A DNA stretch of 64,000 nucleotides from an uncultured Algibacter sp. GTDB taxonomy: Bacteria; Bacteroidota; Bacteroidia; Flavobacteriales; Flavobacteriaceae. The stretch's first letter is position 1. Every line of letters begins with the position of its first letter. Position numbers and translations under genes: made by a program. Location of the stretch: the NCBI RefSeq assembly GCF_947487575.1, contig NZ_CANKXG010000002.1, positions 293,179 to 357,178 of the forward strand, given 5' to 3'. The notes under the pieces were generated by a model, which had not been told where the DNA came from, made no database searches, and worked only from the letters and a program-made list of their open reading frames with translations. Shown piece by piece: positions 4,751 to 64,000 of this stretch.

Positions 4751-4831
4751 GCGTTAGGGATTGAACGGTATGTTTGAGCTCGCCGACGAAGGAGGAAGCG
4801 AGTAGTGAAAGCCCGACCCTTGTGGTAACGC
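4751..4831 (+). repeat. Intergenic repeat, copy a
   Basis: 81 bp bounded by GCGTTA and TAACGC. It contains TAGGGATTGAA near the left end, GAAAGCCCGACCC near the right end and an inner stem CTCGC/GCGAG around GACGAAGGAGG. It lies 29 bp after the ccoI stop, in the same sense as the gene, and ends 30 bp before the Fnr box of ccoS. Confidence 0.85.
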
Positions 4832-4861
4832 CACAAAAAGAATGATTACAAATAAGAAAAC

Positions 4862-4905
4862 ATGACAAATGTCATCTTTTTAAAATAAGTATAAAAGTAT
4901 TTTTG
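4862..4905 (+). promoter_or_regulatory. Fnr-type box and promoter of ccoS-ccoNOQP
   Basis: ATGACAAATGTCAT (4862-4875) is a perfect inverted repeat. A perfect -7 element TATTTTTG (4898-4905) follows with its last base 36.5 bp from the box centre, the same distance as at ccoI and hemN. The expected start is about 4910, 16 bp before the ccoS ATG. Confidence 0.8.
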
Positions 4906-4925
4906 GGCTGTAACTTCAAGTAGGT

Positions 4926-5096
4926 ATGAGTGTTATATATATTTTATTGACTATAAGCATTATAGTGGCAATTGGCTTTTTTGTAGCCTTTATTATTGCT
5001 GTGAAAAGCGGACAATTTGACGATAGTTATACACCATCGGTACGCATGTTATTTGAGGACGAATTGATTAAAGAAAAACCAAAAAAACGATACTAA
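4926..5096 (+). CDS. ccoS: cbb3 oxidase assembly protein CcoS
   Basis: A 56-residue protein beginning MSVIYILLTISI: one membrane helix (about 3-26) followed by a short charged tail with the family-typical KSGQFDD and a Lys-rich end. CcoS is required for maturation of the cbb3 oxidase, probably for cofactor insertion. The gene sits between ccoI and ccoNO, 25 bp before the latter, and is the first gene after the Fnr-type promoter. It is short enough to be missed by automatic ORF length cut-offs, but size, sequence and place all agree. Confidence 0.93.
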   Translation: MSVIYILLTISIIVAIGFFVAFIIAVKSGQFDDSYTPSVRMLFEDELIKEKPKKRY

Positions 5097-5121
5097 CCAA
5101 AGAAGAATAACAATTACAATT

Positions 5122-7314
5122 ATGGAAATGCAACAATTTCATTACGATAATAAAATCGTTACAAAATTCATTTACGCGACAATAATTTTTGGCGTTGTAG
5201 GTATGGCGGTAGGTTTACTACTTGCTTTTATGTTTCTATTCCCTAATCTTACGGATGGAATTTCGTGGCTTAGTTTTGGGCGTTTAAGACCTTTACATAC
5301 TAACGCTGTGATTTTTGCCTTTGTGGGAAATGCCATGTTTGCAGGAATTTATTATTCGTTACAACGTTTATTAAAAGCTAGAATGGCAAGCGACTTGTTA
5401 AGTAATATAAACTTTTGGGGGTGGCAACTTATTATTGTAGCTGCAGCTATTTCATTACCATTAGGGTATTCTACATCTAAGGAGTATGCCGAATTAGAAT
5501 GGCCAATAGATATTGCCATTGCTTTAATTTGGGTGGTTTTTGGTGTGAACATGATTTGGACTATTCTTAAACGTAGACAACGTCACTTATATGTTGCTAT
5601 TTGGTTTTACATTGCTACGTTTGTTACCGTTGCGGTACTTCATATTTTTAATAGTTTAGAGTTGCCAGTTAGTGCAATGAAAAGTTATTCTGTTTACGCT
5701 GGCGTACAAGATGCGCTTGTACAATGGTGGTACGGACACAACGCAGTAGCTTTCTTTTTAACGACTCCGTTTTTAGGATTGATGTATTACTTTGTTCCAA
5801 AAGCAGCAAACAGACCTGTGTATTCTTATAGATTATCTATTGTACATTTTTGGTCGTTAATTTTTCTATATATCTGGGCTGGACCCCATCACTTATTATA
5901 CACCGCATTACCAGAATGGGCACAAAACTTAGGTGTAGCATTTTCTGTGATGTTATTAATGCCATCTTGGGGTGGTATGATAAACGGACTTTTAACCTTA
6001 CGTGGTGCTTGGGATAAAGTTAGAACCGACCCTGTTTTAAAATTTATGGTAGTTGCTATTACTGGTTATGGTATGGCAACTTTTGAAGGCCCAATGCTTT
6101 CGCTTAAAAATGTAAATGCTATTGCTCACTTTACCGATTGGATTATTGCGCACGTACACGTTGGTGCATTAGCTTGGAACGGTTTTATGGCATTTGGTAT
6201 TATTTATTACCTAATTCCACGATTATTTAAAACAAAATTATACTCTTTAGGTTTGGCCAATTTACACTTTTGGCTCGGTACTTTAGGTATTATTATATAT
6301 GCATTACCCATGTATGTTGCTGGTTTTACACAAGCAAGTATGTGGAAACAATTTAACCCTGACGGCACTTTAGTTTACGGTAACTTTTTAGAAACCGTTA
6401 CTGAAATTATGCCAATGTATTGGATGCGTGCTATTGGTGGTACTTTATACATAGTTGGTATGTTTATTCTAGTTTATAATGTGATTGCTACCGTGAAAAG
6501 CGGAAGCAAAGTACAAGATGAATTAGCTGAAGCTCCTGCTTTAGAACGTGTAACTAACAGACGTACTTCAAGCGAAGGATGGCATACATGGTTAGAAAGA
6601 AGACCAATTCAATTAACCATATTAGCAACTGTAGCTATTTTGATTGGTGGTATTATACAGATTGTACCAACCATTATGGTAAAATCTAATATTCCAACTA
6701 TTGCAAGTGTACAACCTTATACACCTCTTGAATTAGAAGGTAGAGATATATACATCCGTGAGGGTTGTGTAGGTTGCCACTCCCAAATGATTCGTCCGTT
6801 TAGAAGTGAAGTTGAACGCTACGGAGAATACTCAAAAGCGGGAGAGTTTGTTTACGACCATCCATTCCTTTGGGGTAGTAAGCGTACAGGTCCAGATTTA
6901 CACCGTGTTGGTGCTAAGTATTCTGACAACTGGCATTTTAACCACATGTACGATCCGCAGAGTACCTCATCTGGTTCTATTATGCCACGTTACCCTTGGT
7001 TAATTACAGGTAGTAGTAGCGAACTAGATAAATCAATGACCGAAGCAAAAATGGAAGCTATGGTAACGTTAGGAGTTCCTTATACAGAAGAAGACATAGC
7101 CAATGCACAACAAAACATGCTAGAGCAAGGTGCTCAAATTGAGCAAAACCTTTATAGCGACCCTGATTTTGCAAAAACTTATGAAGCCGACAAGAAATAT
7201 GCTTCTGATAATGGCGAAGATTTTATAGAAATGAAAAACAGAGAAATTGTTGCAATGATTGCGTATTTACAACGATTAGGAACTGATATTCATGTAAAAC
7301 CTGAGCAACAATAA
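5122..7314 (+). CDS. ccoNO: cbb3-type cytochrome oxidase subunits I and II, fused (CcoN-CcoO)
   Basis: 730 residues joining the catalytic haem-copper subunit and the membrane-anchored cytochrome c subunit. In the CcoN part (about 1-490, some 12 helices) His59 fits the low-spin haem ligand. His206, His256 and His257 fit the CuB ligands, and His344 and His346 fit the haem ligands of helix X. After a short linker and a new membrane anchor (about 495-520), the CcoO part binds one haem c at CVGCH (549-553), with Met621 in GSIMPRYP as likely sixth ligand. It reduces oxygen to water with high affinity and pumps protons. The fusion is usual in Bacteroidota. A second ATG two codons in is an equally possible start. 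Confidence 0.96.
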   Translation: MEMQQFHYDNKIVTKFIYATIIFGVVGMAVGLLLAFMFLFPNLTDGISWLSFGRLRPLHTNAVIFAFVGNAMFAGIYYSLQRLLKARMASDLLSNINFWGWQLIIVAAAISLPLGYSTSKEYAELEWPIDIAIALIWVVFGVNMIWTILKRRQRHLYVAIWFYIATFVTVAVLHIFNSLELPVSAMKSYSVYAGVQDALVQWWYGHNAVAFFLTTPFLGLMYYFVPKAANRPVYSYRLSIVHFWSLIFLYIWAGPHHLLYTALPEWAQNLGVAFSVMLLMPSWGGMINGLLTLRGAWDKVRTDPVLKFMVVAITGYGMATFEGPMLSLKNVNAIAHFTDWIIAHVHVGALAWNGFMAFGIIYYLIPRLFKTKLYSLGLANLHFWLGTLGIIIYALPMYVAGFTQASMWKQFNPDGTLVYGNFLETVTEIMPMYWMRAIGGTLYIVGMFILVYNVIATVKSGSKVQDELAEAPALERVTNRRTSSEGWHTWLERRPIQLTILATVAILIGGIIQIVPTIMVKSNIPTIASVQPYTPLELEGRDIYIREGCVGCHSQMIRPFRSEVERYGEYSKAGEFVYDHPFLWGSKRTGPDLHRVGAKYSDNWHFNHMYDPQSTSSGSIMPRYPWLITGSSSELDKSMTEAKMEAMVTLGVPYTEEDIANAQQNMLEQGAQIEQNLYSDPDFAKTYEADKKYASDNGEDFIEMKNREIVAMIAYLQRLGTDIHVKPEQQ

Positions 7315-7335
7315 CCATCAAAATTATTTAGAATC

Positions 7336-7521
7336 ATGCTAAAATTTGTAAAAAACCATATGGAGAGCATTACAGGAATAGAGATTTACCCGATGATTTC
7401 TCTACTTATCTTCTTTACTTTTTTTGTACTCCTATTTTGGTGGGTTATAACCGCTAAGAAAGACTATATAAAAAACGTAAGCAACTTACCATTAGACAAC
7501 CAAAACGACAATATATTATGA
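7336..7521 (+). CDS. ccoQ: cbb3 oxidase small subunit CcoQ/FixQ
   Basis: A 61-residue protein with one membrane helix (about 18-40, MISLLIFFTFFVLLFWW) and a short polar tail, as in FixQ/CcoQ, which stabilises the assembled oxidase. It lies 21 bp after ccoNO, and its stop overlaps the ccoP start in an ATGA, indicating translational coupling. Length and position support the call more than sequence, which is weakly conserved in this family. Confidence 0.88.
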   Translation: MLKFVKNHMESITGIEIYPMISLLIFFTFFVLLFWWVITAKKDYIKNVSNLPLDNQNDNIL

Positions 7522-8426
7522 GAAATTTAGTTCCATCCTGGATTCGTGTTCCAGTAGTATTCTTTATTATTTTTGGAGCCGTAGAATTCTTTGTAGATTC
7601 TGGAGAAAAACCTGCATTTATTGAATACCCATCAGTATTACTGTTTCTCCTTTTAGTATTACTAATACTAATTGCTATTGAAGCCATTATTGGTGCATTA
7701 GAAAACGTAATGCTTCATAAATTAGATGAAGACGCTAAAGCACGCTTTTTAGCCGAAAAAGAAAAATCATTTAAGTTTACATGGTTAAAAGAAACATACC
7801 AAAAGCTTCTAGGTTCAAAACCTATTGAAGAGGAAGGTGAAATTGTACTTGACCATAACTATGATGGGATTAAAGAGTTAGACAATAACCTACCACCATG
7901 GTGGGTATATTCATTTTACATTTCTATAGTTTTTGCTGCCGTTTATTTATTAAGATACCATGTATTTGATGGTAACAATCAAGTTGATGAATTAGAAATT
8001 GAGTTAGCTGATGCCAGAATTGCTTTAGAAGAATACAAGAAAACCGCTAAAGATTTGGTAGATTTTAATACAGTAACCTTATTAACAGATACAGGCGATT
8101 TAAGTTCTGGTAAAAACATTTTTGAAACCAATTGTGTAGCCTGTCATATGGCAGACGGTGGTGGTGGTATTGGACCAAATTTAACCGATGAACATTGGAT
8201 ACTTGGAGGTGGTATTAAAAATGTATTTAAAACCATTTCTGAAGGTGGACGTTCAGGAAAAGGTATGATTGCTTGGAAGGCACAGTTAAAACCATCTGAA
8301 ATGGCTCAAGTAGCTAGTTATGTTTTAAGTTTTCAGGGTACAACTCCTGCAAACCCTAAAGCTGCTGAAGGCGATATTTGGGTAAATGAAGATAATACAA
8401 TAACAGATAATTTAGTAACCGATTAA
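7518..8426 (+). CDS. ccoP: cbb3 oxidase subunit III, single-haem CcoP
   Basis: 302 residues. Two N-terminal helices (about 8-55), a charged stretch, the family motif PPWWVYSFYISI leading into another helix (about 130-150), then one cytochrome c domain with CVACH at 206-210. Proteobacterial CcoP usually has two haem c sites; here only one CxxCH is present, which I know as usual for Bacteroidota. The likely sixth ligand is a Met in GKGMIAWK. It passes electrons from the bc-type complex or alternative complex III to CcoO. Translationally coupled to ccoQ. Confidence 0.94.
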   Translation: MRNLVPSWIRVPVVFFIIFGAVEFFVDSGEKPAFIEYPSVLLFLLLVLLILIAIEAIIGALENVMLHKLDEDAKARFLAEKEKSFKFTWLKETYQKLLGSKPIEEEGEIVLDHNYDGIKELDNNLPPWWVYSFYISIVFAAVYLLRYHVFDGNNQVDELEIELADARIALEEYKKTAKDLVDFNTVTLLTDTGDLSSGKNIFETNCVACHMADGGGGIGPNLTDEHWILGGGIKNVFKTISEGGRSGKGMIAWKAQLKPSEMAQVASYVLSFQGTTPANPKAAEGDIWVNEDNTITDNLVTD

Positions 8427-8447
8427 TAGCAAATAACTAAACTATCT

Positions 8448-8489
8448 AATCCTGCCAGGTAAACAAACCATATTGAATCTGGCAGGATT
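8448..8489 (+). terminator. Inverted repeat between ccoP and ccoG
   Basis: AATCCTGCCAG (8448-8458) and CTGGCAGGATT (8479-8489) form a perfect 11-bp stem with a 20-base loop. It is followed by TTTAAAAAA, so it is a weak terminator or attenuator that may lower ccoG expression relative to the oxidase subunits. It resembles other CCTGCC-type hairpins near 10.1 kb. Confidence 0.5.
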
Positions 8490-8505
8490 TTAAAAAACCC
8501 AAGTC

Positions 8506-9930
8506 TTGGAAACTCCAAAAAACGAAACATTTAGAGATTCGATTGGTACGATTACAGAAGATGGTAAACGTGCTTGGGTATTTCCTAAAAAGCCAAGTGG
8601 AAAATTTTATGAATACAGAAAATATGTAAGTTACTTTTTATTGATTTTTTTATTGCTATCGCCTTTTATAAAAATAAACGGCAATCAGTTTTTAATGTTC
8701 AATGTATTGGAACGTCGCTTTAATATTTTTGGATTTCCGTTTTGGCCACAGGATTTTCATTTGTTTGTAATTTCTATGCTAATTGGTGTGGTTTTTATCA
8801 CGCTGTTTACGGTAGTTTTTGGTCGTATTTTTTGTGGTTGGATTTGTCCGCAAACTATTTTTATGGAAATGGTTTTTCGTAGAATTGAATATTGGATTGA
8901 AGGTGATAGAAATAAACAACGAAAACTTGCTAGACAAAAATGGAATGCTGAAAAGATTAGAAAAAAAGGATTAAAACAATTCATTTTTATTATTATTTCA
9001 TTCATTATTGCAAACGTATTTTTAGCTTACTTAATAGGAAGCGACAAACTGATTGAATACATTTTTGAAGGCCCATTAGAAAACATTAGTACTTTAATTT
9101 CCTTATTAATTTTTACAGGTGTTTTCTATTTTGTGTTTGCATGGTTTAGAGAACAGGTGTGCATTATTGCTTGCCCTTACGGAAGGTTACAAGGTGTGTT
9201 ACTAGACACAAAATCTATTGTTGTGGCTTACGACCATAAACGTGGTGAAGCTGAAAATGGTAGAAAGAAATTTAGAAAAAATGAAGATCGCGAAGCTTTA
9301 GGTCATGGTGATTGTATTGATTGTTTACAATGTGTACACGTTTGCCCAACAGGAATTGATATTAGAAATGGCACACAACTAGAATGTGTAAACTGTACCG
9401 CTTGTATTGATGAGTGCGACCATATAATGGAAAGTATCAACTTACCAAAAGGGTTGATTCGTTATGCAAGTGAGGAGGAAATTGAAAAGAAAGCCAAGTT
9501 TAAACTTACACCTAGAATAAAAGGCTATATAGCTGTTCTTTCTATAATGATTGGGTTGTTAATTGGTATGTTGTTTTTGCGACATGATGTGGAAGCTAAT
9601 GTTTTAAGGTTGCCTGGGCAATTGTACGAACATAAAGATGGTAATATTATAAGTAATGTGTTTACTTATAAATTAGTCAACAAAACTTCGGCGGATATTA
9701 ATGATGTGAGTTTTAAACTGATGTCGCATAAAGGCGAATTGAAATTAGTATCAACAAGTAGTGACTTTGTAGTGCCAAGTCAAGGTATTGCCGAAGGAAC
9801 TTTGTTTATCGAGATTAATAATTCGGTATTATCTGGAGATAGAAATAAAATTAAAATTGGTGTTTATAAAGGTGAAAAACTCATTGAAACGACTACGGCT
9901 AATTTTTTAGGACCGCGAAGTTATAAATAA
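8506..9930 (+). CDS. ccoG: cbb3 oxidase accessory protein CcoG (polyferredoxin)
   Basis: 474 residues. A TTG start is chosen because METPKNETFRDSIGTITEDG is the conserved beginning of the family. Five membrane helices are followed by two [4Fe-4S] motifs, CIDCLQCVHVCP (about 270-281) and CVNCTACIDEC (about 302-312). Further Cys sit in the helices at IFCGWICPQ and CIIACPYG. A C-terminal immunoglobulin-like domain lies outside the membrane after the last helix. CcoG reduces Cu2+ to Cu+ for CcoI-linked delivery to the oxidase. A hairpin precedes it, and a dense run of repeats separates it from ccoH. Confidence 0.95.
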   Translation: METPKNETFRDSIGTITEDGKRAWVFPKKPSGKFYEYRKYVSYFLLIFLLLSPFIKINGNQFLMFNVLERRFNIFGFPFWPQDFHLFVISMLIGVVFITLFTVVFGRIFCGWICPQTIFMEMVFRRIEYWIEGDRNKQRKLARQKWNAEKIRKKGLKQFIFIIISFIIANVFLAYLIGSDKLIEYIFEGPLENISTLISLLIFTGVFYFVFAWFREQVCIIACPYGRLQGVLLDTKSIVVAYDHKRGEAENGRKKFRKNEDREALGHGDCIDCLQCVHVCPTGIDIRNGTQLECVNCTACIDECDHIMESINLPKGLIRYASEEEIEKKAKFKLTPRIKGYIAVLSIMIGLLIGMLFLRHDVEANVLRLPGQLYEHKDGNIISNVFTYKLVNKTSADINDVSFKLMSHKGELKLVSTSSDFVVPSQGIAEGTLFIEINNSVLSGDRNKIKIGVYKGEKLIETTTANFLGPRSYK

Positions 9931-9977
9931 GCTAGAAGCCCGAAGACAGAAGTTGGAAGTGACTTTGGCGGATACGT

Positions 9978-10057
9978 GCATTAGGGATTGAAACGGCATC
10001 CTTTTTTGAGGCACGAGAAAAAGATATAGTGGAAAGCCCGACCCGACAGGGTAATGC
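9978..10057 (+). repeat. Intergenic repeat, copy b
   Basis: 80 bp with ends GCATTA and TAATGC: both ends differ from the common GCGTTA/TAACGC and still pair. The inner part is of the second type (GGCATCCTTTTTT ... GAAAAAGATATAG), and the right stem is ACCC-gaca-GGGT. The left flank GGCGGAT is shared with copies c and e. It is sense to ccoG, 47 bp after its stop. Confidence 0.85.
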
Positions 10058-10113
10058 CAAAATAAAAAAAGACGGAAGCTCGAAGACGGGAAAAAAGAAG
10101 TTTGAGCTTGTTT

Positions 10114-10140
10114 CCTGCGAGGTTTTAAAAACCTTGTAGG
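10114..10140 (+). repeat. CCTGCGAGG hairpin
   Basis: CCTGCGAGGTTTT and AAAACCTTGTAGG pair along 13 bp, including two G-U pairs, around a single base. It lies between ccoG and ccoH, flanked by purine-rich GAAG runs (9931-9960 and 10071-10100). It may end or slow transcription, but no T-run follows. Confidence 0.55.
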
Positions 10141-10173
10141 TATAAAATTAAAATTATTATTAACTAAAAATAG

Positions 10174-10193
10174 ATTCCTGCCTTCGCAGGAAT
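10174..10193 (+). repeat. REP-like CCTGC hairpin before ccoH
   Basis: ATTCCTGC - cttc - GCAGGAAT is a perfect 8-bp stem with a 4-base loop, ending 7 bp before the chosen ccoH start. The motif AGATTC...GAATGACA recurs at 18922-18945, suggesting a small REP-like family. Confidence 0.6.
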
Positions 10194-10200
10194 GACAGAT

Positions 10201-10647
10201 ATGAAATTTAATTGGGGTACCGGAATTGTATTAGCGTTTATAGGCTTTATTTCGTTTATAATGTACTTTATTGTCACTATGAATGTGAATAATAAATACG
10301 ATCATGATTTGGTTAGTGAGGATTATTACGCCGACGAATTGAAATACCAAAACGATATAAATAAGCTTAAAAACTCTAAAACTTTAGAGGCTAATATTAG
10401 CTACCAAAAAACAGCTGAAGGTTTGGCTATAAAATTTCCTGAAGCATTCGATTATAAAAATATTACAGGAAAATTGTTCCTATATAGACCATCTAACAAA
10501 CAACTAGACTTTGAGACTGCTATCTCATTGTCTAATCATAATTTGCTCATACCTGACAAACGTTTGGTAGATGGTCGTTGGAACATTAAAATAGATTGGC
10601 AATATAAAGGAAAATCTTATTTATTTAAAGAATCAATAAATTATTAA
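10201..10647 (+). CDS. ccoH: FixH/CcoH family cbb3 oxidase assembly protein
   Basis: 148 residues from the ATG at 10201 (MKFNWGTGIVLAFIGF). An ATG 9 bp upstream lies in the hairpin repeat and is less likely. One N-terminal membrane helix (about 8-30) with the family motif DHDLVSEDYYADELKYQ just after it, then a periplasmic domain of about 90 residues. FixH/CcoH is needed for stable assembly of cbb3 oxidase. It is followed after 1 bp by the TauE/SafE-like gene. The run of repeats upstream suggests it may be transcribed apart from ccoG, though I see no clear promoter. Confidence 0.9.
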   Translation: MKFNWGTGIVLAFIGFISFIMYFIVTMNVNNKYDHDLVSEDYYADELKYQNDINKLKNSKTLEANISYQKTAEGLAIKFPEAFDYKNITGKLFLYRPSNKQLDFETAISLSNHNLLIPDKRLVDGRWNIKIDWQYKGKSYLFKESINY

Positions 10648-10648
10648 T

Positions 10649-11360: not shown

Positions 11361-11452
11361 GGGTTACCCTCGTGCCTCAGGTCGGGCTTTACGCTACAAG
11401 TCCTCGCACCTCCTACGTCGGGCTGTGGGCTTTACGCTGCAATCCCTAACCC
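11361..11452 (-). repeat. Intergenic repeat, copy c
   Basis: 92 bp read on the minus strand. Its ends are GGGTTA and TAACCC, a two-sided change from GCGTTA/TAACGC that keeps pairing. It carries both inner AAAGCCC motifs (GCGTAAAGCCC twice), plus GAGGTGCGAGGACTTGTA. It begins 10 bp after the stop codon of the TauE/SafE-like gene, antisense to it. Confidence 0.88.
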
Positions 11453-17917: not shown

Positions 17918-18012
17918 ACGTTAACAGTAGTAATGAAAAGCCCAAAACCTGACTTAAAAAGTGTGAGAACTTGTAACGAATCGTCTACCCCCCCCACTTT
18001 TTTGGGTAACGC
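17918..18012 (+). repeat. Intergenic repeat, copy j (diverged)
   Basis: 95 bp from ACGTTA to TAACGC (terminal base mismatched). It keeps AAAAGCCCA, ACCTGAC, GAGAACTTGTAACGAA and a right stem CCC...GGG around a C8 tract. The left flank GCTAATATGCCC matches those of copies i and k. It lies 60 bp beyond the uspA stop codon, antisense to that gene. The rest of 17724-18072 holds no gene that I can support. Confidence 0.7.
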
Positions 18013-24072: not shown

Positions 24073-24153
24073 GCGTTAGGGATTACAGTGAAAAGCCCAC
24101 AGTAAGTTACGAACGAGGACTTGTAACGGAAAGCCAGACCCTTGTGGTAACGC
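24073..24153 (+). repeat. Intergenic repeat, copy d
   Basis: 81 bp, GCGTTA to TAACGC. Both inner motifs are present (GTGAAAAGCCCAC and AACGGAAAGCC), and the right stem is ACC-cttgt-GGT. It ends 12 bp from the stop codon of the LolC-like gene, antisense to it. The flank CCCAAAAAATAAATTA up to the stop codon is shared with copy g. Confidence 0.88.
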
Positions 24154-33642: not shown

Positions 33643-33736
33643 GCGTTAGGGATTGAAGTGGATAGCCCACAGGTTTGCCAATTTTTATTGGCGGACCGAG
33701 GACTTGTAACGAAAAGCCCGACCCTTGTGGTAACGC
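33643..33736 (+). repeat. Intergenic repeat, copy e
   Basis: 94 bp, GCGTTA to TAACGC. The inner block is replaced by a strong hairpin: GGTTTGCCAAT pairs with ATTGGCGGACC over 11 bp if G-U pairs are allowed. Left flank GGCGGAT as in copies b and c. It ends 10 bp from the stop of the 2TM gene, antisense to it. Confidence 0.88.
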
Positions 33737-34076: not shown

Positions 34077-34088
34077 AATCTTAATTTT

Positions 34089-34391
34089 TTAATTCCATTT
34101 GTTTTCGTCTTTACGCATTAATTCTTCAATTTTGCGTTCTTCCCAATTACGTCCCAAGGTGCCTTTGTGAACAAAAACTACAAATGCATGAATGGTTACT
34201 CCTATACCCCAACCTAAAATTGGGAACCAAAACCATTTATAATCCCAATAGGTTTTATAATTGATAAAAATCATGAACGGTGAAAATAAACAGTAAGCAA
34301 AGAGGTGCTGATAAAACGCTTTTATATCTTCGATATGCTTACGGGCTCTTATCTCTTTTTTATTAGTTTCTGTATCTTGCATTTGTTCCAT
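34089..34391 (-). CDS. 2TM domain protein
   Basis: 100 residues from ATG 34391 (MEQMQDTETNKKEIRARKH). A longer frame to 34481 would overlap the kinase gene and has no support. Two membrane helices follow FYQHLFAYCLFSPFMIFIN, with the conserved WFWFPILGWGIG and the tail WEERKIEELM. Closely related to the C-terminal part of the kinase encoded just upstream, indicating tandem duplication. Confidence 0.82.
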   Translation of the reverse strand: MEQMQDTETNKKEIRARKHIEDIKAFYQHLFAYCLFSPFMIFINYKTYWDYKWFWFPILGWGIGVTIHAFVVFVHKGTLGRNWEERKIEELMRKDENKWN

Positions 34392-34404
34392 TTTATTTAA
34401 TTTT

Positions 34405-35745
34405 TTAATCCCAATTTTTATCTTCGTTACGCATAAATTCTTCCATTTTGCGTTTTTCCCATTTTCTTCCAAATGCACCATCGTTTACAAAAACCTTAAA
34501 AGCTTGAATAGCTAAACCAATACCCCAACCAAACATTGGGAACCAAAACCATTGGAAATTCCATGAAGTTCTGTAATTGATAAATATTAACAATGGAATA
34601 ACTAAGCAATACGATATAACACTGTAATAAAACCCTTTAAGTTCGTCTACATGGTTTAATGCGCGCATGTAACTGTCATCTAATTGTGATGTTGATTGTT
34701 CTGTTCTCATGACTGATATTTTTTTAGTAAGCATAGGTATTGCTACTGCAAAACGATTTGCTTCTTTGTGTATATTTACTTTTTTGTTGGTTAATAAATC
34801 GTAGCGTTGTTTGATGTTACTTAAACCTACACCACTACTCTTTTTGACTATTTGTTTGGGTTGTAAATTATTTTCAACTACCAAATCTCCTTGGTCTTCA
34901 TAAATTCTAATATGCAAAGGTTTACTTGATGTTACCATATTATGCTTTACCGCATTTTCTAATAACAATTGTAATGATAATGGCACCACTTTACTTTCTG
35001 GGTTTGATGCAGTTTCGGGCATGGTAAAAACAATACTATCTTCAAAACGCATTTTAAGTAAAGACATATAGGTTTTAGCAAACTGCAACTCCTCATCTAC
35101 CGTTACTAATTCTTTATTTTTTTGCTCTAAAACATAGCGATATACTTTTGATAATGATGTTGTAAACTTTTGTGCATTATCTGGATTCTCTTCAATTAAA
35201 CTGGTTAACACATTTAAACTATTGAATAGAAAATGTGGATCTAGCTGGTTTTTTAAAGCATCAAACTTAGCACTTGCTGTACCTGCAATTACTTTTTGTT
35301 CTTTTATTCTATTTTGCTGATACTTATTATAAAAATAGATAACATGAAAAATGATAACAATGGTTAGCGTTATCCATAAACCAAATTGATAACTTTTAAA
35401 CGTTTCTCTAGATAAAAAATCATTAAACGAAACCCCTCCATATACCATATAGGTTGAAACTCTGAGTATAAACAGACCAATTAAGGTTATAATTGTTGCC
35501 CCTAGAATACCAATTACGATACGCTTAATGTTATCATTCTTTTTCCAGTTGCGGCGTTCCATGTAATCAAAAAAATACATATTGGAATAGCCTAACACAA
35601 AAGAATACAGTTGATAAAATCCAAAATCGATTAAAAACTCATTAGTTGTTTCAAAATCAAATCCGCCAGATAACAGGTTGCCAATTACAAAAATGACACA
35701 TCCTATAATGAAAGTGGTAATGATATTTTTAGTCGATTTCGTCAT
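34405..35745 (-). CDS. LytS-type histidine kinase fused to a C-terminal 2TM domain
   Basis: 446 residues. Four N-terminal membrane helices (about 8-140), a short coiled stretch, the His_kinase domain with LDPHFLFNSLNVL (His near 171), and an ATPase domain with LLLENAVKHN and GVGLSNIKQRYDLL. The kinase would normally end near residue 345. Here it continues in frame through VMRTEQSTSQLDDSY into a full 2TM domain (WFWFPMFGWGIG ... WEKRKMEEFM). A free-standing 2TM gene seems to have been joined by loss of the stop codon; an internal Met could still start it separately. Partner of the LytTR regulator. Confidence 0.9.
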   Translation of the reverse strand: MTKSTKNIITTFIIGCVIFVIGNLLSGGFDFETTNEFLIDFGFYQLYSFVLGYSNMYFFDYMERRNWKKNDNIKRIVIGILGATIITLIGLFILRVSTYMVYGGVSFNDFLSRETFKSYQFGLWITLTIVIIFHVIYFYNKYQQNRIKEQKVIAGTASAKFDALKNQLDPHFLFNSLNVLTSLIEENPDNAQKFTTSLSKVYRYVLEQKNKELVTVDEELQFAKTYMSLLKMRFEDSIVFTMPETASNPESKVVPLSLQLLLENAVKHNMVTSSKPLHIRIYEDQGDLVVENNLQPKQIVKKSSGVGLSNIKQRYDLLTNKKVNIHKEANRFAVAIPMLTKKISVMRTEQSTSQLDDSYMRALNHVDELKGFYYSVISYCLVIPLLIFINYRTSWNFQWFWFPMFGWGIGLAIQAFKVFVNDGAFGRKWEKRKMEEFMRNEDKNWD

Positions 35746-39304: not shown

Positions 39305-39501
39305 GGTTAGGGATTGTAGCGGCATCCTTTTTTGAAAAAAACAGATATACCTTTACTTTAGAAATGAAATTTAACAGATAGCCACGTCGCCCGCTCCTCG
39401 CTATGACGTAAAAAAAAATATAGCGAAACATTTATGTTCATGAATTCAAAAATTTAAAATAGAAATGCATAAATAAAAGCCCGACCCTTTTCGGGTAACG
39501 C
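39305..39501 (+). repeat. Intergenic repeat, copy f (expanded)
   Basis: 197 bp. Left end GGTTAGGGATTGTAG with GGCATCCTTTTTT (second type, as in b and h). Right end AAAGCCCGACCC-ttttc-GGGTAACGC with a 4-bp stem. The middle is expanded and shares GCTATGACGT with copy h. Left terminal pairing is lost. It lies between the IS110 remnant and the TRIC pseudogene, not next to a live gene. Confidence 0.75.
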
Positions 39502-47194: not shown

Positions 47195-47293
47195 GCGTTA
47201 GGAATTGAAGTGTATAGCCCACAGCCTGACGAAGGAGGTGCGAGGACTTGTAACAGAAAGCCCTCCCGATAGCTATCGGGATTGTGGTAACGC
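47195..47293 (+). repeat. Intergenic repeat, copy g
   Basis: 99 bp, GCGTTA to TAACGC. It has GTGTATAGCCCACAGCC, GACGAAGGAGGTGCGAGG and ACTTGTAACAGAAAGCCC. The right stem is enlarged by CCCGATAGCTATCGGG, a perfect 16-bp palindrome. It ends 12 bp from the stop codon of the membrane protein gene, antisense to it; the flank up to that stop is shared with copy d. Confidence 0.9.
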
Positions 47294-51200: not shown

Positions 51201-51348
51201 GCGTTACCCAAAAAAGGGTCGGGCTATCCGTTATATCTTTTTAAAACGTCATAGCGAGAACGATAAGACCTAGCTATCTACTTAATACAACTTCTATCAA
51301 TTTTTTACATGTCAATTTTAAAAAGGATGCCACTACTATCCCTTACGC
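51201..51348 (-). repeat. Intergenic repeat, copy h (expanded)
   Basis: 148 bp on the minus strand. Left end GCGTAAGGGATAGTAG (one terminal mismatch), GTGGCATCCTTTTT, a middle with GCTATGACGT as in f, AAAAAGATATAACGGATAGCCC, and right stem ACCC-tttttt-GGGTAACGC. It begins 1 bp after the receptor stop codon, antisense to it. Confidence 0.85.
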
Positions 51349-57786: not shown

Positions 57787-57792
57787 TTTAGG

Positions 57793-57878
57793 GCGTTACC
57801 ACAAGGGTCGGGCTATCCGTTACAAGTCCTCGCACTTCCTTCGTCAGGCTGTGGGCTATCCACTACTATCCCTAACGC
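57793..57878 (-). repeat. Intergenic repeat, copy i
   Basis: 86 bp on the minus strand and close to the consensus: GCGTTAGGGATAGTAG, GTGGATAGCCCACAGCC, GACGAAGGAAGTGCGAGG, ACTTGTAACGGATAGCCC, GACCCTTGTGGTAACGC. It begins 6 bp after the DUF58 stop codon, antisense to it. The left flank AGCAAATAAGCC is shared with copy k. Confidence 0.92.
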
Positions 57879-59438: not shown

Positions 59439-59785
59439 TGTTATTATTTATCTTAATACAACAAATATACACAAAATAAGTTGATTAAAAACTACTTATT
59501 ATTACAAAAAACACAGTTTTAAGAAGATACCGACAGATATAAACTATTAATTCAACAATTCTAATTTACATTCAATAAAACACAATATTTCGTGGATATG
59601 AAATCGTTTTAATACTGCAACTCTTTACAAAATCATGTAATACTATTATCAATTTGTAACAGATTAAAACAATAAATACTTTCAATACAATTCATCATTA
59701 AAAAACCACAACTCAGTAACTACAATTATAAAAATGGCTGTTAGTGTTAGATATTTGAAGTGTCAAACACATAAAACCATATATC
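59439..59785. other. Intergenic region before the DUF2141 gene
   Basis: 347 bp without a gene. The best promoter candidate is GATATTTG near 59748-59755, one base off TAnnTTTG, about 30 bp before the DUF2141 ATG. TTGTAACAG and several A/T runs occur, but no repeat or hairpin that I can support. Confidence 0.35.
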
Positions 59786-60208
59786 ATGAAGACATTAACA
59801 TTAATCATCGCACTAGTAGTATCCGTAAATTTTAGTAACGCACAAGAAACCAAAACCGGTAAAACAATTACCGTAACCATAGAAAACATAACCAATAATA
59901 ACGGTAGTGTTATTTTAGGACTTCACACCAAAGACACCTTTATGAAAGGACAAGGCGTCAAGAGTGCCGAAAGCAAAATTGTTGATGGAAAAATTACAGT
60001 AACTTTTAAAAACGTAAAAGCTGGGAGTTACGCTATTATGGCATTACACGACGAAAACGAAAATAAAAGAATGGATTTTCAAGAAAACGGTATGCCTAAA
60101 GAATCTTACGGTATGTCTAACAACCCAATGAGTTATGGACCACCTCAATATTCAGCAGCAAAATTCGAATTAAAGAATGAGGATTTAGATTTAAAAATAG
60201 TATTCTAA
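59786..60208 (+). CDS. DUF2141 family exported protein
   Basis: 140 residues. Signal peptide MKTLTLIIALVVSVNFSNAQ, then a single DUF2141 beta-sandwich with the conserved GSYAIMALHDENENKRMDF and GMPKESYGMSNN. The DENENxxxDF stretch looks like a calcium-type acidic loop. The function is unknown; carotenoid operons often carry relatives, but none of those genes is here. A good terminator follows the gene. Confidence 0.88.
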   Translation: MKTLTLIIALVVSVNFSNAQETKTGKTITVTIENITNNNGSVILGLHTKDTFMKGQGVKSAESKIVDGKITVTFKNVKAGSYAIMALHDENENKRMDFQENGMPKESYGMSNNPMSYGPPQYSAAKFELKNEDLDLKIVF

Positions 60209-60225
60209 AAACTAAAAACATAATA

Positions 60226-60259
60226 AAAAAAGCAACCTCTTAATGATGGTCGCTTTTTT
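60226..60259 (+). terminator. Terminator of the DUF2141 gene
   Basis: AAAAAAGCAACC (60226-60237) and GGTCGCTTTTTT (60248-60259) pair with one mismatch around 10 bases. The sequence is closely related to the arms of the inverted repeat at 61381-61605. Confidence 0.8.
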
Positions 60260-60433
60260 TTAAACTAATTCCAACTATTCAAACTAAACTATTTTTTTAG
60301 ACGCTTGTTTATGTCAAAACTTACATCTTCCAAAAATTATTTACTCCTAACTACAATTTTAATTTATAATTAACAGCTACTTCAATAAGTTTTATTGATA
60401 GTTTTTATATTTTTATAGCCTAAAGAGATATCA

Positions 60434-61372
60434 ATGACTATTACACAATTATATTACGTTTTGGCTGTAGCCGAAAACCAAAATTTCACGAAAGCTGCTG
60501 AAAAATGCTTTGTAACTCAACCCACATTGAGTATGCAAATTCAAAAGCTTGAAGACCAACTGGATGTTCTAATTTTTGATAGAAGCAAAAAGCCTATTGA
60601 ACTTACCGAAGTTGGAAAAAAAATTGTGACACAAGCAAGAAATATTGTAAACGAATCTTACCGTATTCAAGATATTGTAGACCAACAAAAAGGATTTATT
60701 GGCGGCGAATTCAAACTTGGTATTATACCAACAGTAATGCCAACTTTACTCCCTATGTTTTTGAAGAATTTTATAAAAAAACATCCAAAAGTAAAATTAA
60801 AAATTGAAGAGCTTACTACAGAAGAAATTATAACTAGAATAAAAGATGGTCATTTAGATGCGGCAATTGCTGCTACACCTTTAGAAGATGAAAACATTAA
60901 GGAACGTGTTTTATATTTCGAGCCTTTTGTAAGCTATATACCTAAGGAACACCGATTACATTCTAATAAAAAAATTGATGTAGCAGATTTAGATATCGAT
61001 GATATGCTACTCCTTGAAGACGGACATTGTTTTAGAGATGGAGTTATTAATTTGTGTAAGGTTTTTAAAGACCATTCTGATGATCAATTCCAATTAGAAA
61101 GTGGAAGTATTGAAACTTTAATAAAACTATCAAATGAAGGTTTAGGCATGACACTTCTACCCTACTTACATACTTTGGATATTAACGAGAAAGAAAAAGC
61201 CAATTTACATTATTTTAACGAGCCTTCGCCAGCTAGAGAAGTTAGCATCATCTATCATAAAAGTGAATTAAAGATGCAGATTATAGAAGCTTTACAAGAT
61301 GTTATTTCTGGAATAATACGTGGTGCTATTGCTTTTCAAAATGTGAAAATTATTAGTCCACTATCAAAATAA
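60434..61372 (+). CDS. oxyR: OxyR, peroxide-sensing LysR-type regulator
   Basis: 312 residues. LysR helix-turn-helix at the N-terminus (NFTKAAEKCFVTQPTLSMQI) and a substrate domain with LLLEDGHCFRDGVINLC. This places Cys at 199 and 208, the same numbers and nine-residue spacing as the redox disulfide of E. coli OxyR. It therefore senses hydrogen peroxide and activates defence genes. None of its usual targets (katA, ahpC, dps) is in the window; sodC lies far away. A strong terminator follows. Confidence 0.94.
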   Translation: MTITQLYYVLAVAENQNFTKAAEKCFVTQPTLSMQIQKLEDQLDVLIFDRSKKPIELTEVGKKIVTQARNIVNESYRIQDIVDQQKGFIGGEFKLGIIPTVMPTLLPMFLKNFIKKHPKVKLKIEELTTEEIITRIKDGHLDAAIAATPLEDENIKERVLYFEPFVSYIPKEHRLHSNKKIDVADLDIDDMLLLEDGHCFRDGVINLCKVFKDHSDDQFQLESGSIETLIKLSNEGLGMTLLPYLHTLDINEKEKANLHYFNEPSPAREVSIIYHKSELKMQIIEALQDVISGIIRGAIAFQNVKIISPLSK

Positions 61373-61402
61373 AAATACTAAAAAAGCAACCTAGGTCTAG
61401 TC

Positions 61403-61433
61403 ATGGTCGGAAGAAATTCCGACCATTTTTTTT
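61403..61433 (+). terminator. Terminator of oxyR
   Basis: ATGGTCGGAA - gaaa - TTCCGACCAT, a perfect 10-bp stem with a GAAA tetraloop, followed by eight T. It lies 30 bp after the oxyR stop codon. Confidence 0.9.
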
Positions 61434-61550
61434 AAGTCTCAAAATGGTCTAAGTTTCCTTTGCAGTCTACAACAATCATAGCATAACTTCTATTCCATTT
61501 TTATTCAATGAGACTAGATGACTTACATTGAGTTCTTGTTTTATAAAACA

Positions 61551-61576
61551 AAAAAGCCGGAAGAATAAATCTTCCG
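61551..61576 (-). terminator. Terminator of the small minus-strand gene
   Basis: Read on the minus strand: CGGAAGA - tttat - TCTTCCG followed by GCTTTTTTG. Preceded by the shared arm of the inverted repeat. Confidence 0.8.
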
Positions 61577-61603
61577 ACCATGACTAGACCTAGGTCGCTT
61601 TTT

Positions 61604-61798
61604 TTATTTTAAATAAATTAAACATTGATTTAATTCTGGGTTTTGCTGTACCATTGATTGAATAAAAATTTTAAGCTCTTCAATCTCATAAGGCAGTAAT
61701 CTTTGTAGTGCCTTTTGTACTTCTTTGCAAAACAACGTTGTATCAAAACTAACTTTATTAAGCACAGTTTTAGTATACTCTAGCATTGCTCTCGCCAT
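61604..61798 (-). CDS. Small conserved protein, unknown function
   Basis: 64 residues, MARAMLEYTKTVLNKVSFDT then FCKEVQKALQRLLPYEIEEL. Soluble, helical, no membrane segment or known domain. I have a sense of close relatives in other Flavobacteriaceae with the same start and the motif RLLPYE, but could not search. It has its own terminator, which shares its sequence with that of oxyR. A regulatory or ribosome-associated role cannot be read. Confidence 0.65.
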   Translation of the reverse strand: MARAMLEYTKTVLNKVSFDTTLFCKEVQKALQRLLPYEIEELKIFIQSMVQQNPELNQCLIYLK

Positions 61799-61919
61799 GT
61801 TCTTGTTAAGGTTTTAGGTTTAAATTAATAGTAGATTTTTTTTATGGGCTCTTTTATTTAGAACTCTAAATTTAATAAAAAATTACATTAGTCCACTATT
61901 TTAATAGGACTTTAACACA

Positions 61920-62720
61920 TTAAAACCTGTTATCGCCGTCCAATAAATCGCCCAAACCACCTAAAATGCTTCCTTCTCCTTTGTCTTTACCACCAACTCG
62001 CGGAGCTGATGCCAATACTCTTCCTGCAAGTCTGCTAAATGGCAAAGACTGCACAAAAACAGTTCCTGGACCTTGCAACTTAGCAAAGAATAAGCCTTCG
62101 CCGCCAAATACAGTATTTTTAATACCGCCAACAAACTCAATATCATAATCTACAGTTTGATCGAACCCTACAATACATCCAGTATCAACTCTTAAAGTTT
62201 CTCCTGCTGCTAATTCCTTTTTAGCCATCGTTCCCCCAGCATGAACAAATGCCATACCATCACCTTCTAATTTTTGCATGATAAAACCTTCGCCTCCAAA
62301 AAGTCCGCGACCTAATTTTTTAGAAAATTCTATACCCACGCTTACACCTTTTGCTGCACATAAAAAGGCATCTTTTTGACAAATAAACTTACCTCCAAAT
62401 GTTGTTAAATCTATTGGGATAATTTTACCAGGGTATGGTGATGCAAAGGATACATTACGTTTTCCAACAAGATCATTATAAAAGGCTGTCATGAATAAAC
62501 TTTCTCCTGTTAAGATACGTTTTCCTGCTCCTAGAATTTTCCCTAAAAAGCCTGTATCTTTTTGTGAGCCATCTCCAAAAATGGTTTCCATTTTAATACC
62601 GTCATCCATCATCATAAAGCTTCCTGCTTCGGCTACTACGCCTTCTTGTGGGTCTAGTTCTATTTCTACGTATTGCATTTCTTCCCCGTAGATGCGATAA
62701 TCTATTTCGTGTGATGTCAT
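61920..62720 (-). CDS. TIGR00266/AIM24 family protein
   Basis: 266 residues of a three-fold beta-prism. Repeated blocks include [40 protein letters not shown] and [16 protein letters not shown], then [20 protein letters not shown]. The C-terminus is Gly-rich ([13 protein letters not shown]). The family is widespread and lacks a known enzymatic role; mitochondrial AIM24 relatives affect membrane organisation. It stands alone on the minus strand. Confidence 0.9.
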
Positions 62721-62865
62721 TTTTTATTGTTTTTTGTTGATTCGTTTATATGTTGATTTGTTTTGAGTTTTGTTACAAGTTTTTTTAAAATTCCAAACTG
62801 AGAATAAATTTATTTTCTCACAAAGGGCAATAAGTCGCAAAGAATTAAGAGACTTATTGACTACC

Positions 62866-62889
62866 GAGACTGAGACTGATACTGAGACT
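62866..62889. repeat. Short tandem GAGACTGA repeat
   Basis: GAGACT GAGACT GATACT GAGACT: four imperfect hexamers just after the stop codon of the DUF4442 gene on the minus strand. Confidence 0.6.
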
Positions 62890-62894
62890 TTAAA

Positions 62895-63350
62895 CTAGCT
62901 TTTAACTTTAACACTCCACTCAAAATTGAATGTTGACACTACACCCCCATCTTCATTTACCCCAACGGATTGCATCCATAAGGTTTGCCCTTCTCCTGTT
63001 TCTATGGCTTTTTTAAGTACTTCATCAATCGCTTTTCCATCATTGCAGGTAAATTTAATTTTTCCTGTGGCCTTTTTGGTAAATGTGGCATTGTTTGATA
63101 TTACTAACATAGAGATACGTTTACCAGATTCTTGTATCTTACTTATCATTAATGCACCCGTTGAAAACTCTGCTGCCATACCCTGTACTGCCCAAAACAT
63201 AGACTTAAAAGGATTTTGGTTTATCCATTTAAATGTAACACCTACCACACATTTCTCGTTATCGATATGTTTTGTTCTAACACCGCACAGATATGCTGCT
63301 GGCAGTTTAAACATAGTGTATGTATTTAATTTTCTTGGTGTTAACGTCAT
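62895..63350 (-). CDS. DUF4442 hotdog-fold protein
   Basis: 151 residues. The domain spans the length: KLPAAYLCGVRTKHIDNEK, VTFKWINQNPFKSMFWAVQG and ATFTKKATGKIKFTC. DUF4442 proteins have the hotdog fold of acyl-CoA thioesterases; the usual catalytic acid of such enzymes would be near FWAVQGMAAEF, where a Glu is seen. Activity is not certain. Confidence 0.85.
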   Translation of the reverse strand: MTLTPRKLNTYTMFKLPAAYLCGVRTKHIDNEKCVVGVTFKWINQNPFKSMFWAVQGMAAEFSTGALMISKIQESGKRISMLVISNNATFTKKATGKIKFTCNDGKAIDEVLKKAIETGEGQTLWMQSVGVNEDGGVVSTFNFEWSVKVKS

Positions 63351-63459
63351 TATATTTTTTTTAATTCTCTACTAAGTTATGAAATTATAAGCTATTGATA
63401 AATGTTAAATTTATGTTAATTTTTAGTACTATGCGTAACAAAGTACCTTCTTTTAGACA

Positions 63460-63467
63460 TATATTTG
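63460..63467 (+). promoter_or_regulatory. Predicted -7 element of the DUF4870 gene
   Basis: TATATTTG, full match to TAnnTTTG, 42 bp before the ATG at 63509. No clear -33 TTG. Confidence 0.4.
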
Positions 63468-63508
63468 CATAGGAAACTATTATATGTTTTAATCAATCAT
63501 CAAAAATC

Positions 63509-63955
63509 ATGTTAGACAATCATCAAAAAAACATTGCCACTTTTATTCATTTATCTACCTTTAGTAGATTCTTTATTCCGTTTGGAAATTTTATTGGCCC
63601 AATAATATTATGGAGTGCCAATAAAGAAAAATCTGAATTTATAGATACGCATGGAAAACAGGCTATTAATTTTCAGATTAGTGTTTTTCTGTATGCCATA
63701 ATTTTAGGAACGTTGACGATTCCGCTTTTTATTTTTAAAATTTTTAATGGCATTGACTTTATAGATTTTCATGGTTTTGAGAGTTTCCATATTAATATTG
63801 GAAAGCCTTCTCCGCTACTTTATATAGGTGGTGTTTTAGGTGCTTTTGCCGTAATTGGTTTTATTATTGAACTAGCCTTAATTGTTGTTGCGAGTTTAAA
63901 AGCTAGAGATGGTCAGGTTTATAAATATCCGTTAACTATTAACTTTTTAAAATGA
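63509..63955 (+). CDS. DUF4870 membrane protein
   Basis: 148 residues with three membrane helices (about 17-37, 54-75, 108-130). The family start NIATFIHLSTFSRFFIPFGN and the motif DTHGKQAINFQIS are clear. The function is unknown; relatives often sit beside PspC or regulatory genes. It is the last complete gene of the window. Confidence 0.88.
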   Translation: MLDNHQKNIATFIHLSTFSRFFIPFGNFIGPIILWSANKEKSEFIDTHGKQAINFQISVFLYAIILGTLTIPLFIFKIFNGIDFIDFHGFESFHINIGKPSPLLYIGGVLGAFAVIGFIIELALIVVASLKARDGQVYKYPLTINFLK

Positions 63956-63994
63956 CACTATGCTTAGGCACACGTTTAGTTAGCAAATATGCCC

Positions 63995-64000
63995 GCGTTA
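63995..64000 (+). repeat. Intergenic repeat, copy k (cut by window end)
   Basis: Only GCGTTA is visible, but the flank AGCAAATATGCCC before it matches the left flanks of copies i and j, so a further copy very likely starts here, 39 bp after the DUF4870 stop codon. Confidence 0.55.

What the first reader, a model, noticed from the sequence alone, without database searches (positions are those of the whole stretch)
4751..64000. An interspersed intergenic repeat family with GCGTTA/TAACGC ends, ten full copies and one cut copy in 64 kb
Copies lie at 4751-4831, 9978-10057, 11361-11452(-), 17918-18012, 24073-24153, 33643-33736, 39305-39501, 47195-47293, 51201-51348(-), 57793-57878(-) and 63995-end. 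Shared blocks in order: GCGTTAGGGATTGAAG, GTGGATAGCCCACAG, GACGAAGGAGGTGCGAGG, ACTTGTAACGGAAAGCCC, GACCCTTGTGGTAACGC. All are outside genes. They are far more conserved than the surrounding A+T-rich spacers and much richer in G+C. No transposase is linked. One copy per about 6 kb would mean hundreds in a genome if the density holds. I know no name for it.
Basis: seen in the sequence. Interest (0 to 1): 0.85.

Follow-up and report, generated by a model that had tools for sequence, protein, structure and literature searches.

The report
Mosaic Flavo-1 repeats with swapping cores
The repeats are a known but unexplained family filed as a small RNA (Flavo-1), and they look like dispersed DNA elements whose outer frame stays at the same chromosomal spot across species while the middle piece is repeatedly swapped for another type.

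Summary
The copies belong to Rfam RF01705, Flavo-1 (Weinberg 2010): a named family of unknown function, of which Rfam models one form. In this genome (near Algibacter) a model built here finds 132 copies, a lower bound; one contiguous 200 kb suggests about 200. New here: (1) a copy is a constant frame, with outer stem GCGTTA/TAACGC and a three-way junction, around one of at least five core types; Rfam's is type C. (2) In three well-covered species most orthologous sites are occupied and keep locus-specific frame variants, while the core type differs in 16 of 32 orthologous pairs (10 of 18 sites). (3) A second frame does the same: at sufD-sufS all nine readable genomes of the genus have it, with three core types and at least four switches. 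(4) Stems covary with few wobble pairs (G-T 11, A-C 14 in 14 strong pairs; 19 and 15 in all 16), which favours pairing in DNA. (5) No Y1 transposase is linked; genomes without one carry many copies. Best reading: a REP/BIME-like mosaic DNA element at gene ends whose hairpin core is exchanged between dispersed copies, perhaps by replication template switching. The mechanism is inferred.

The parts
4751..4831 (+). Flavo-1 element, frame 1, core type B
   Evidence: R1 69.6 bits; core type by motif; orthologous site filled with other cores in other species
9978..10057 (+). Flavo-1 element, frame 1 with outer stem GCATTA/TAATGC, core type C; between a ccoG-like gene (Fer4_18, FixG_C) and a FixH gene
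   Evidence: RF01705 49.9 bits, over the gathering score; R1 74.3 bits; neighbouring genes by Pfam
11361..11452 (-). Flavo-1 element, frame 1 with outer stem GGGTTA/TAACCC, core type A
   Evidence: R1 79.2 bits; same stem variant at the site in five genomes, cores A, B and C
17918..18012 (+). Degenerate Flavo-1 element, frame 1, core nearest to type A
   Evidence: R1 21.8 bits, E 0.0023; typed (an earlier rule had called it B by a chance motif)
24073..24153 (+). Flavo-1 element, frame 1, core type A (short apical part)
   Evidence: R1 74.7 bits
33643..33736 (+). Flavo-1 element, frame 1, core type A with a long apical hairpin; core C at the same site in G002
   Evidence: R1 76.9 bits; orthologue
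39305..39501 (+). Decayed long Flavo-1 element, core like type C, with a CGTC-like palindrome in its loop
   Evidence: ends and core seen in sequence; only the 3' half matches R1, 14.5 bits
47195..47293 (+). Flavo-1 element, frame 1, core type A, palindrome CCCGATAGCTATCGGG in helix 3
   Evidence: R1 66.7 bits
51201..51348 (-). Flavo-1 element, frame 1, long core type C
   Evidence: RF01705 49.3 bits, over the gathering score; R1 53.2 bits
57793..57878 (-). Flavo-1 element, frame 1, core type A; core B in G002 at a place with the same flanks next to the same DUF58 gene
   Evidence: R1 85.6 bits; rows L031 10339 and L032 10339, gene positions (the anchors did not link this site)
63993..64000 (+). 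First bases of a Flavo-1 element, core type A, cut by the window end
   Evidence: complete in L041 193-283, R1 83.5 bits

Best explanation
These are members of the Flavo-1 family acting as a mosaic, REP/BIME-like intergenic DNA repeat. Shown by comparison: a constant frame (outer 6-bp stem, a second stem GGG-A-TT / AA-G-CCC, a small third hairpin, an A+T-rich tail) holds one of several core types; frames stay at their loci across species and keep locus-specific stem variants; cores at those loci are replaced by other types. Inferred: the folded form is a DNA hairpin or cruciform; cores are exchanged, and stem arms kept complementary, when a polymerase stalled in the hairpin switches template to the other arm or to another copy (or by short-homology gene conversion). 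Inferred and weaker: copies are kept at gene ends because a structured DNA spacer there is tolerated or mildly useful (as hypothesised for REPs), not because each encodes an sRNA.
For: Identity with RF01705. Covariation: 12 of 16 pairs with double changes against 6.6 in shuffles and 115 double-change cells against 20.4 in 99 distinct copies (alignment fitted to the model; slid controls 2-6 pairs, 2-40 cells); in the MAFFT alignment of 25 copies, from which I named the structure, 10 pairs against 3.5. Outer stem read straight off the ends: 557 Watson-Crick cells, 7 G-T, 30 other. G-T 11 against A-C 14 in the 14 strong pairs; ten distinct tRNAs in the loci held have 22 G-T of 226 pairs. Site occupancy: G000 to G002 10 of 13, G000 to G007 9 of 11, G002 to G007 11 of 12. 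Core swap: 16 of 32 orthologous pairs among G000, G002, G007 differ in core type, at 10 of 18 sites, with flank identity 0.58 up and 0.76 down against 0.44 and 0.38 for non-orthologous pairs; outer-arm variant agrees in 65 of 86 orthologous pairs against 41.1 by shuffling, core type in 36 of 86 against 24.1. Second frame at sufD-sufS: 9 of 9 readable genomes of the genus, cores C, D and F, at least 4 changes on a tree of the flanking genes. Template switching as a way to keep stems paired is published (PMC8794818, abstract and start of introduction seen).
Against: No exchange was caught in the act: donors were not identified, and nearest cores are not preferentially in the same genome (35 type-A, 9 type-B, 11 type-C copies: p 0.32, 0.38, 0.64), which fits old exchanges or exchange between species as well. 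Core type still agrees at orthologous sites more than chance (36 of 86 against 24.1, 48 of 5000 shuffles). The G-T/A-C test rests on 25 cells; with the two weak pairs that I set aside it is 19 against 15, and one of those pairs alone has 5 against 0. Computed DNA folds are unremarkable: z of nine copies between -1.3 and 0.4 for eight, -2.5 for one. Persistence of sites across genera (sufD-sufS) hints at a locus function that this reading leaves open. Some switches may be allele transfers between species.
Confidence: 0.58

Rival explanations
1. It is a structured RNA, as filed in Rfam: a cis-acting element or sRNA transcribed from the strand modelled, with cores giving different specificities.
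For: Strong covariation; internal loops GAA/GGA and A.G are conserved on the modelled strand and could make sheared pairs (sequence; the pairing type is recalled knowledge); sites persist across genera; counting all 16 pairs G-T 19 exceeds A-C 15 slightly.
Against: In the 14 strong pairs G-T (11) is no more common than A-C (14), against 22 G-T of 226 pairs in tRNA stems. Orientation is mixed: in codirectional gaps 9 sense and 13 antisense. In F. psychrophilum Flavo-1 hits lie indistinctly sense or antisense to transcribed regions and many are in none (PMC9723704, section 19 read; it also says that several coincide with 5' transcribed regions). RNA folds of seven copies: z between -1.03 and -0.13 for six, -3.24 for one.
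Confidence: 0.22
2. It is a non-autonomous transposon mobilised by a RAYT-type (Y1) or other transposase, and cores change by re-insertion.
For: Terminal inverted repeats, high copy number and empty sites; one site (G001 against G003) differs by the element with about 67 bases upstream and 20 downstream between ATTAA repeats. Genomes with Y1_Tnp more often have RF01705: 39 of 48 against 38 of 72, tallied by hand from the lists, p 0.002.
Against: G002 and G005 have no Y1_Tnp match but 70 and 31 RF01705 matches; G079 has 36 (all that were scored) and no Y1 match. Only 2 of 13 Y1 loci of the genus (42 kb) hold a copy, 0.8 kb or more from the domain, about what the general density gives. No pair of orphan halves 0.26-8 kb apart in 1.18 Mb. 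Swapped sites keep their own frame variant. Transposases other than Y1 were not searched.
Confidence: 0.13
3. Certain gene ends are hot spots; elements are lost and different ones inserted again at the same spot.
For: Copies lie just after stop codons: the 3' end is within 15 bp of an opposing stop in 14 of 40, the 5' end in 1 of 40. Absence and presence alternate at some sites. At two of the ten differing sites (window 47193; G007 82895) the flanks agree poorly, so re-insertion there is possible.
Against: Locus-specific frames stay while cores change, e.g. GGGTTA/TAACCC with cores A, B and C in five genomes, and GCGTTAACG...CGTGTTAAAACGC with cores C and B in three.
Confidence: 0.07

Closest known systems
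Flavo-1 RNA, Rfam RF01705 (Weinberg et al. 2010, PMC2864571, passages seen)
   Same: Same family: core C, the flanking GATWG...GAWAGC and helix 2 are the Rfam model; Flavobacteria; scattered hits
   Different: Rfam models 76 positions with one core, types it as sRNA gene, and leaves out the frame-1 outer stem and third hairpin, the other cores and the exchange of cores
REP / BIME repeats (PMC3733652 and PMC6006769, passages seen; mosaic make-up partly recalled)
   Same: Around 200 intergenic palindromic copies, excess between convergent genes, deficit between divergent ones, mosaic composition
   Different: No RAYT gene flanked by copies found; 80-150 nt with a junction; different cores alternate inside one fixed frame at one locus
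CGTC-tagged palindromic repeats (PMC3733652, abstract and passages seen)
   Same: Short structured intergenic repeats, also in Bacteroidetes, without a dedicated transposase
   Different: Different sequence; CGTC-like palindromes appear, by eye, inside the loops of long core-C copies
MITEs (recalled definition)
   Same: Short, inverted terminal repeats, no coding capacity
   Different: No parent transposon found in the stretches searched, possible target duplication at one site only, old shared sites with changing interiors

Membership tests
Flavo-1, RF01705 | Covariance-model score over the gathering cut-off | tested here: met
   2 of 11 window copies over 42 bits, 6 of 11 at E<=1; own genome 61 matches at E<=0.001, 22 over the cut-off. 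The other copies fall below it.
Structured RNA | Covariation of a secondary structure | tested here: met
   pairing in DNA would give the same
Structured RNA | Wobble pairs favoured over A-C on the folded strand | tested here: not met
   G-T 11 against A-C 14 in 14 strong pairs, 19 against 15 in all 16; small numbers; tRNA 22 G-T of 226 pairs
Structured RNA | Transcript of the modelled strand | not testable with these tools
   only the published remark on F. psychrophilum
REP with RAYT | Copies flank a Y1 (RAYT) gene in the genome | tested here: not met
   2 of 13 Y1 loci of the genus hold a copy, 0.8 kb or more away; G002 and G005 have no Y1 match
REP with RAYT | GTAG-type tag at the foot of the palindrome | not tested
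   none noticed at the frame ends; no systematic test
MITE | Terminal inverted repeats | tested here: met
   GCGTTA/TAACGC and compensated variants
MITE | Target site duplication | tested here: inconclusive
   ATTAA at one site, G001 against G003, where a deletion between repeats explains it equally; the other empty sites printed are too diverged
MITE | Autonomous relative with the same ends | tested here: inconclusive
   no orphan half pairs 0.26-8 kb apart in 1.18 Mb; whole genomes not searched for this

The most novel reading that the evidence does not exclude
Flavobacteriaceae carry a genome-wide set of fixed landing frames between genes, whose hairpin cassettes are exchanged by a dedicated process acting on folded single-stranded DNA (an enzyme or a replication pathway not yet known), so that each locus switches among a small shared repertoire of cores over evolutionary time while the frame is kept by selection.
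Probability: 0.17. Interest if true: 0.85.

Novelty: new variant of a known kind. Interest (0 to 1): 0.62.

Why it matters
A family that Rfam types as an sRNA gene, and that a 2022 review names in its section on the most abundant sRNAs (PMC9029176, passages seen), looks like a DNA element, which would change how it is annotated in Flavobacteriaceae genomes. The exchange of cores inside frames that stay at orthologous loci gives a natural record of sequence transfer between dispersed hairpins, and makes testable whether compensatory changes in stems can arise by template switching rather than by selection on an RNA.

Tried and rejected
Local duplication in the window: rejected. RAYT mobilisation: see rivals; the only Y1 gene of this genome is fused to a coproporphyrinogen oxidase domain, with one weak copy cut by the edge of the locus 1.4 kb away. 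Integron attC-like site: considered from memory only and dropped because the polarity GTTA...TAAC is the reverse of attC as I recall it; no call tested this. Orientation bias along the replichore: I looked over the strand order of hits and saw none; no statistic. Intrinsic terminator: no T-run seen after the stem on either strand; the terminator scanner was not run. Pairing of 5' bases (TTTRGC) with the 3' tail (CCAAA): seen in some copies, not consistent, not counted. Donor search by nearest cores: negative. Pattern for frame 2 over all loci: too loose, mostly chance hits (84); only the 18 rows CCTG/CAGG, CCCG/CGGG and CCAG/CTGG look real, and those are Watson-Crick. The first tRNA control gave 0 through a parsing error, repeated. 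Core typing miscalled at least two copies through a chance AGTAGTA; types by position instead, and the totals 36 of 86 and 16 of 32 came out the same.

Caveats on counts: the 84 elements are hits in syntenic stretches; L030, L041 and the own C7 and C11 copies were not used there. Of the 400 kb of own stretches the C7 ones were picked knowing that they held hits; C2:1-200000 was taken whole. The 225 element-by-genome comparisons (162 filled, 63 empty) count one site several times. Of the 16 differing pairs two involve an untyped copy of 43 nt, and a third a deleted copy of 44 nt typed A; two sites (window 47193, G007 82895) have poorly agreeing flanks. One group (G000/G002/G008 with G001/G003) probably joins two sites, and the G006 member of another may be a separate insertion. 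G005 was not readable at the suf site; presence there was judged by eye, in 30 genomes from about 214 bases before sufS only. score 36 and 150 candidates per genome. Literature searches: of open-licence papers only.
Full report
What was found. Rfam's Flavo-1 model RF01705 matches two of them over its gathering score and six at E<=1. In the paper that defined it I saw one table line: RNA y, cis-regulatory n, Bacteroidetes (PMC2864571, passages). I searched the held library for Flavo-1 with RNA (3 papers) and RF01705 (4 papers; two of them seen only as listings); nothing I saw describes frames, cores or exchange.

Anatomy. I aligned 25 copies from this genome and relatives, named a structure from them, counted it and built model R1: outer stem GCGTTA/TAACGC, then GGG-A-TT (or TA)-GAA-G(C/T) against (A/G)C-GGA-AA (or TA)-G-CCC, then a small hairpin ACCC...GGGT, so a three-way junction, then a tail near CCCAAATAATTTAA (information profile). 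Upstream conservation is weak. Between GATWG and GAWAGC lies a core. By motif: A (GTGGATAGCCCACAG...GAGGACTTGTAACGG), B (ACGGCATGTTTGA...GAGTAGTG), C (GCGGCATCCTTTTTT...AAAAAAGATATAGCGG, the Rfam form), D (AGGCATTTGTTGAAGCTC...AGCGACTGCC), E (TAGCTTTTGGCGAGGC...GCCAAAACTA). Of 84 copies in syntenic stretches: A 38, C 18, B 17, E 5, D 4, untyped 2.

Copy number. R1 finds 132 matches at E<=0.01 in the own genome, with the best 150 of 1032 candidates scored, against 61 at E<=0.001 for RF01705. Twelve lie in C2:1-200000, which scales to about 210. The ten genus genomes searched all have RF01705 matches, 31 to 77 each. In the family 77 of 120 genomes have one. R1, the frame-1 form, is rarer outside the genus: 7 matches in 80 loci of up to 13.4 kb around ccoG, four of them in three Algibacter loci.

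Frames stay, cores change. With anchors on both sides I mapped 84 elements between nine genomes of the genus. In the three best-covered ones most sites are filled: G000 to G002 10 of 13, G000 to G007 9 of 11, G002 to G007 11 of 12. At such sites the frame keeps its own variant while the core differs. Examples: GGGTTA/TAACCC in five genomes with cores A, A, A, C, B; GCGTTAACGATTG...AAAGCGTGTTAAAACGC in three with cores C, B, B; GCATTA with TAATGC or GAATGC in four with C, C, C, B. Of 32 orthologous pairs in the trio 16 differ in core type, at 10 of 18 sites (two pairs involve an untyped deleted copy). In the differing pairs the flanks are still 0.58 (up) and 0.76 (down) identical, against 0.44 and 0.38 for non-orthologous pairs. 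The outer-arm variant agrees in 65 of 86 orthologous pairs (41.1 expected, 0 of 5000 shuffles), core type in 36 of 86 (24.1 expected, 48 of 5000): cores are reshuffled, but not completely. Empty sites also exist (63 of 225 redundant comparisons).

A second frame. Of 28 best RF01705 loci printed, one per genome, 21 have another frame, TAGCCYNG-ATWG-core-AWAGC-NRGG-AAATAGCTTC or close to it, six begin with GCGTTA or GTGTTA, and one (L177) has a GGG/CCC stem without an outer stem that I recognise (this search favours core C and the Rfam flanks). Its helix changes as CCCG/CGGG, CCTG/CAGG, CCAG/CTGG. Several lie, by their flanks, at the same places in different genera; one is between sufD and sufS, antisense to the operon (own copy in L001). 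Among 60 family genomes it is there in 9, one of them degenerate; in the genus in 9 of 9 readable genomes, with core C in four, D in three and a further type F in two. On a tree of sufS plus most of sufD (element left out) these need at least 4 changes within the genus and 6 over 16 genomes (4 of 13 inner branches strongly supported, 6 drawn open). So core exchange is not a property of one frame.

DNA or RNA. Covariation is strong: 12 of 16 pairs with double changes against 6.6 in shuffles (alignment fitted to the model), and the outer stem read straight from the ends shows GCGTTA, GGGTTA, GCATTA, GCGCTA, GCGTGA, GCGTAA and GCGCAA with their complements. But the exceptions are not mainly wobble pairs: G-T 11, A-C 14 in the 14 strong pairs of 99 copies (p 0.69), or 19 and 15 if the two weak pairs are kept, one of which has G-T 5 and A-C 0. 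An RNA under selection should favour G-U on its strand. Orientation to codirectional genes is 9 sense and 13 antisense, and the F. psychrophilum transcriptome paper says that several 5' transcribed regions coincide with Flavo-1 but that hits are indistinctly sense or antisense and many are in no transcribed region. I take this as favouring pairing in DNA, on small numbers. That arms can be kept complementary by replication template switching is a published idea (PMC8794818); that the same process moves cores between copies is my inference.

Context. Of 36 placed own copies 22 lie in codirectional, 12 in convergent and 2 in divergent gaps; gaps of 20 bases or more are 178, 45 and 56 (convergent p 0.019, divergent p 0.038; genes called by a simple longest-ORF rule). 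Of 40 own copies 3 were at stretch edges and 1 fell in a called ORF. In 14 of 40 the element's 3' end lies within 15 bp of the stop codon of an opposing gene; in 1 of 40 the 5' end lies so close to a stop. Part of that asymmetry may come from 5' bases that belong to the element but are not in R1.

Mobiliser. The own genome has one Y1_Tnp match, in a frame fused to a coproporphyrinogen oxidase domain. G002 and G005 have none yet 70 and 31 RF01705 matches. Over 120 genomes the two go together more than by chance (39 both, 9 Y1 only, 38 Flavo-1 only, 34 neither, tallied by hand; p 0.002), which may be kinship or genome size, or an old role; this is the main result against a reading without RAYT. 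No orphan halves in pairs 0.26-8 kb apart in 1.18 Mb. Other transposases were not searched. One near-identical pair of genomes differs by the element with about 67 upstream and 20 downstream bases between ATTAA repeats, an insertion or a deletion.

Verdict. Ordinary in that the family is known and abundant; new in that it is modular, that its frames are fixed while its cores are exchanged, and that it behaves more like DNA than RNA. The exchange is shown by comparison; its mechanism and any benefit to the cell are inferred. On checking I lowered the best explanation slightly (0.60 to 0.58) because the wobble test is weaker with all pairs counted.

Noticed in passing
L009 340-1863 (G000:C10, minus strand): The genome's only Y1 transposase-like domain is fused in frame to a full coproporphyrinogen III oxidase domain (PF01218 449.6 bits; Y1_Tnp 20.2 bits for this frame). 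Open frames of 493-542 aa with an NHxH-type motif and the same oxidase motif occur in L015, L018 and L021 (by motif only).
   Followed up: partly
window 39305-39501 and 51201-51348; L125 12479, L126 5723: Long core-C copies carry a CGTC-like palindrome (as CACGTCGC...CTCGCTATGACG) in the apical loop, as if other repeats settle in the loops (by eye).
   Followed up: no
window 47195-47293; L133 8204, L023 7723, L131 1598: The third hairpin often holds other short palindromes: CCCGATAGCTATCGGG, CTGCAAGGTTTT...AAAACCTT, or one with GGGCGCAGTCGAA (by eye).
   Followed up: no
window 34081-34611: Two direct copies of 215 nt at 76% identity, 316 apart; they fall in two neighbouring ORFs that both carry a 2TM domain, one of them with a histidine kinase domain.
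   Followed up: partly
own copies with the 3' end facing a gene: The tail CCAAATAATTTA reads TAAATTATTTGG on the other strand and so offers a TAA; stops of opposing genes often lie in or next to it.
   Followed up: no
L024 19742-19822: Group II intron match (RF00029, 41.4 bits) near a contig end in G004.
   Followed up: no
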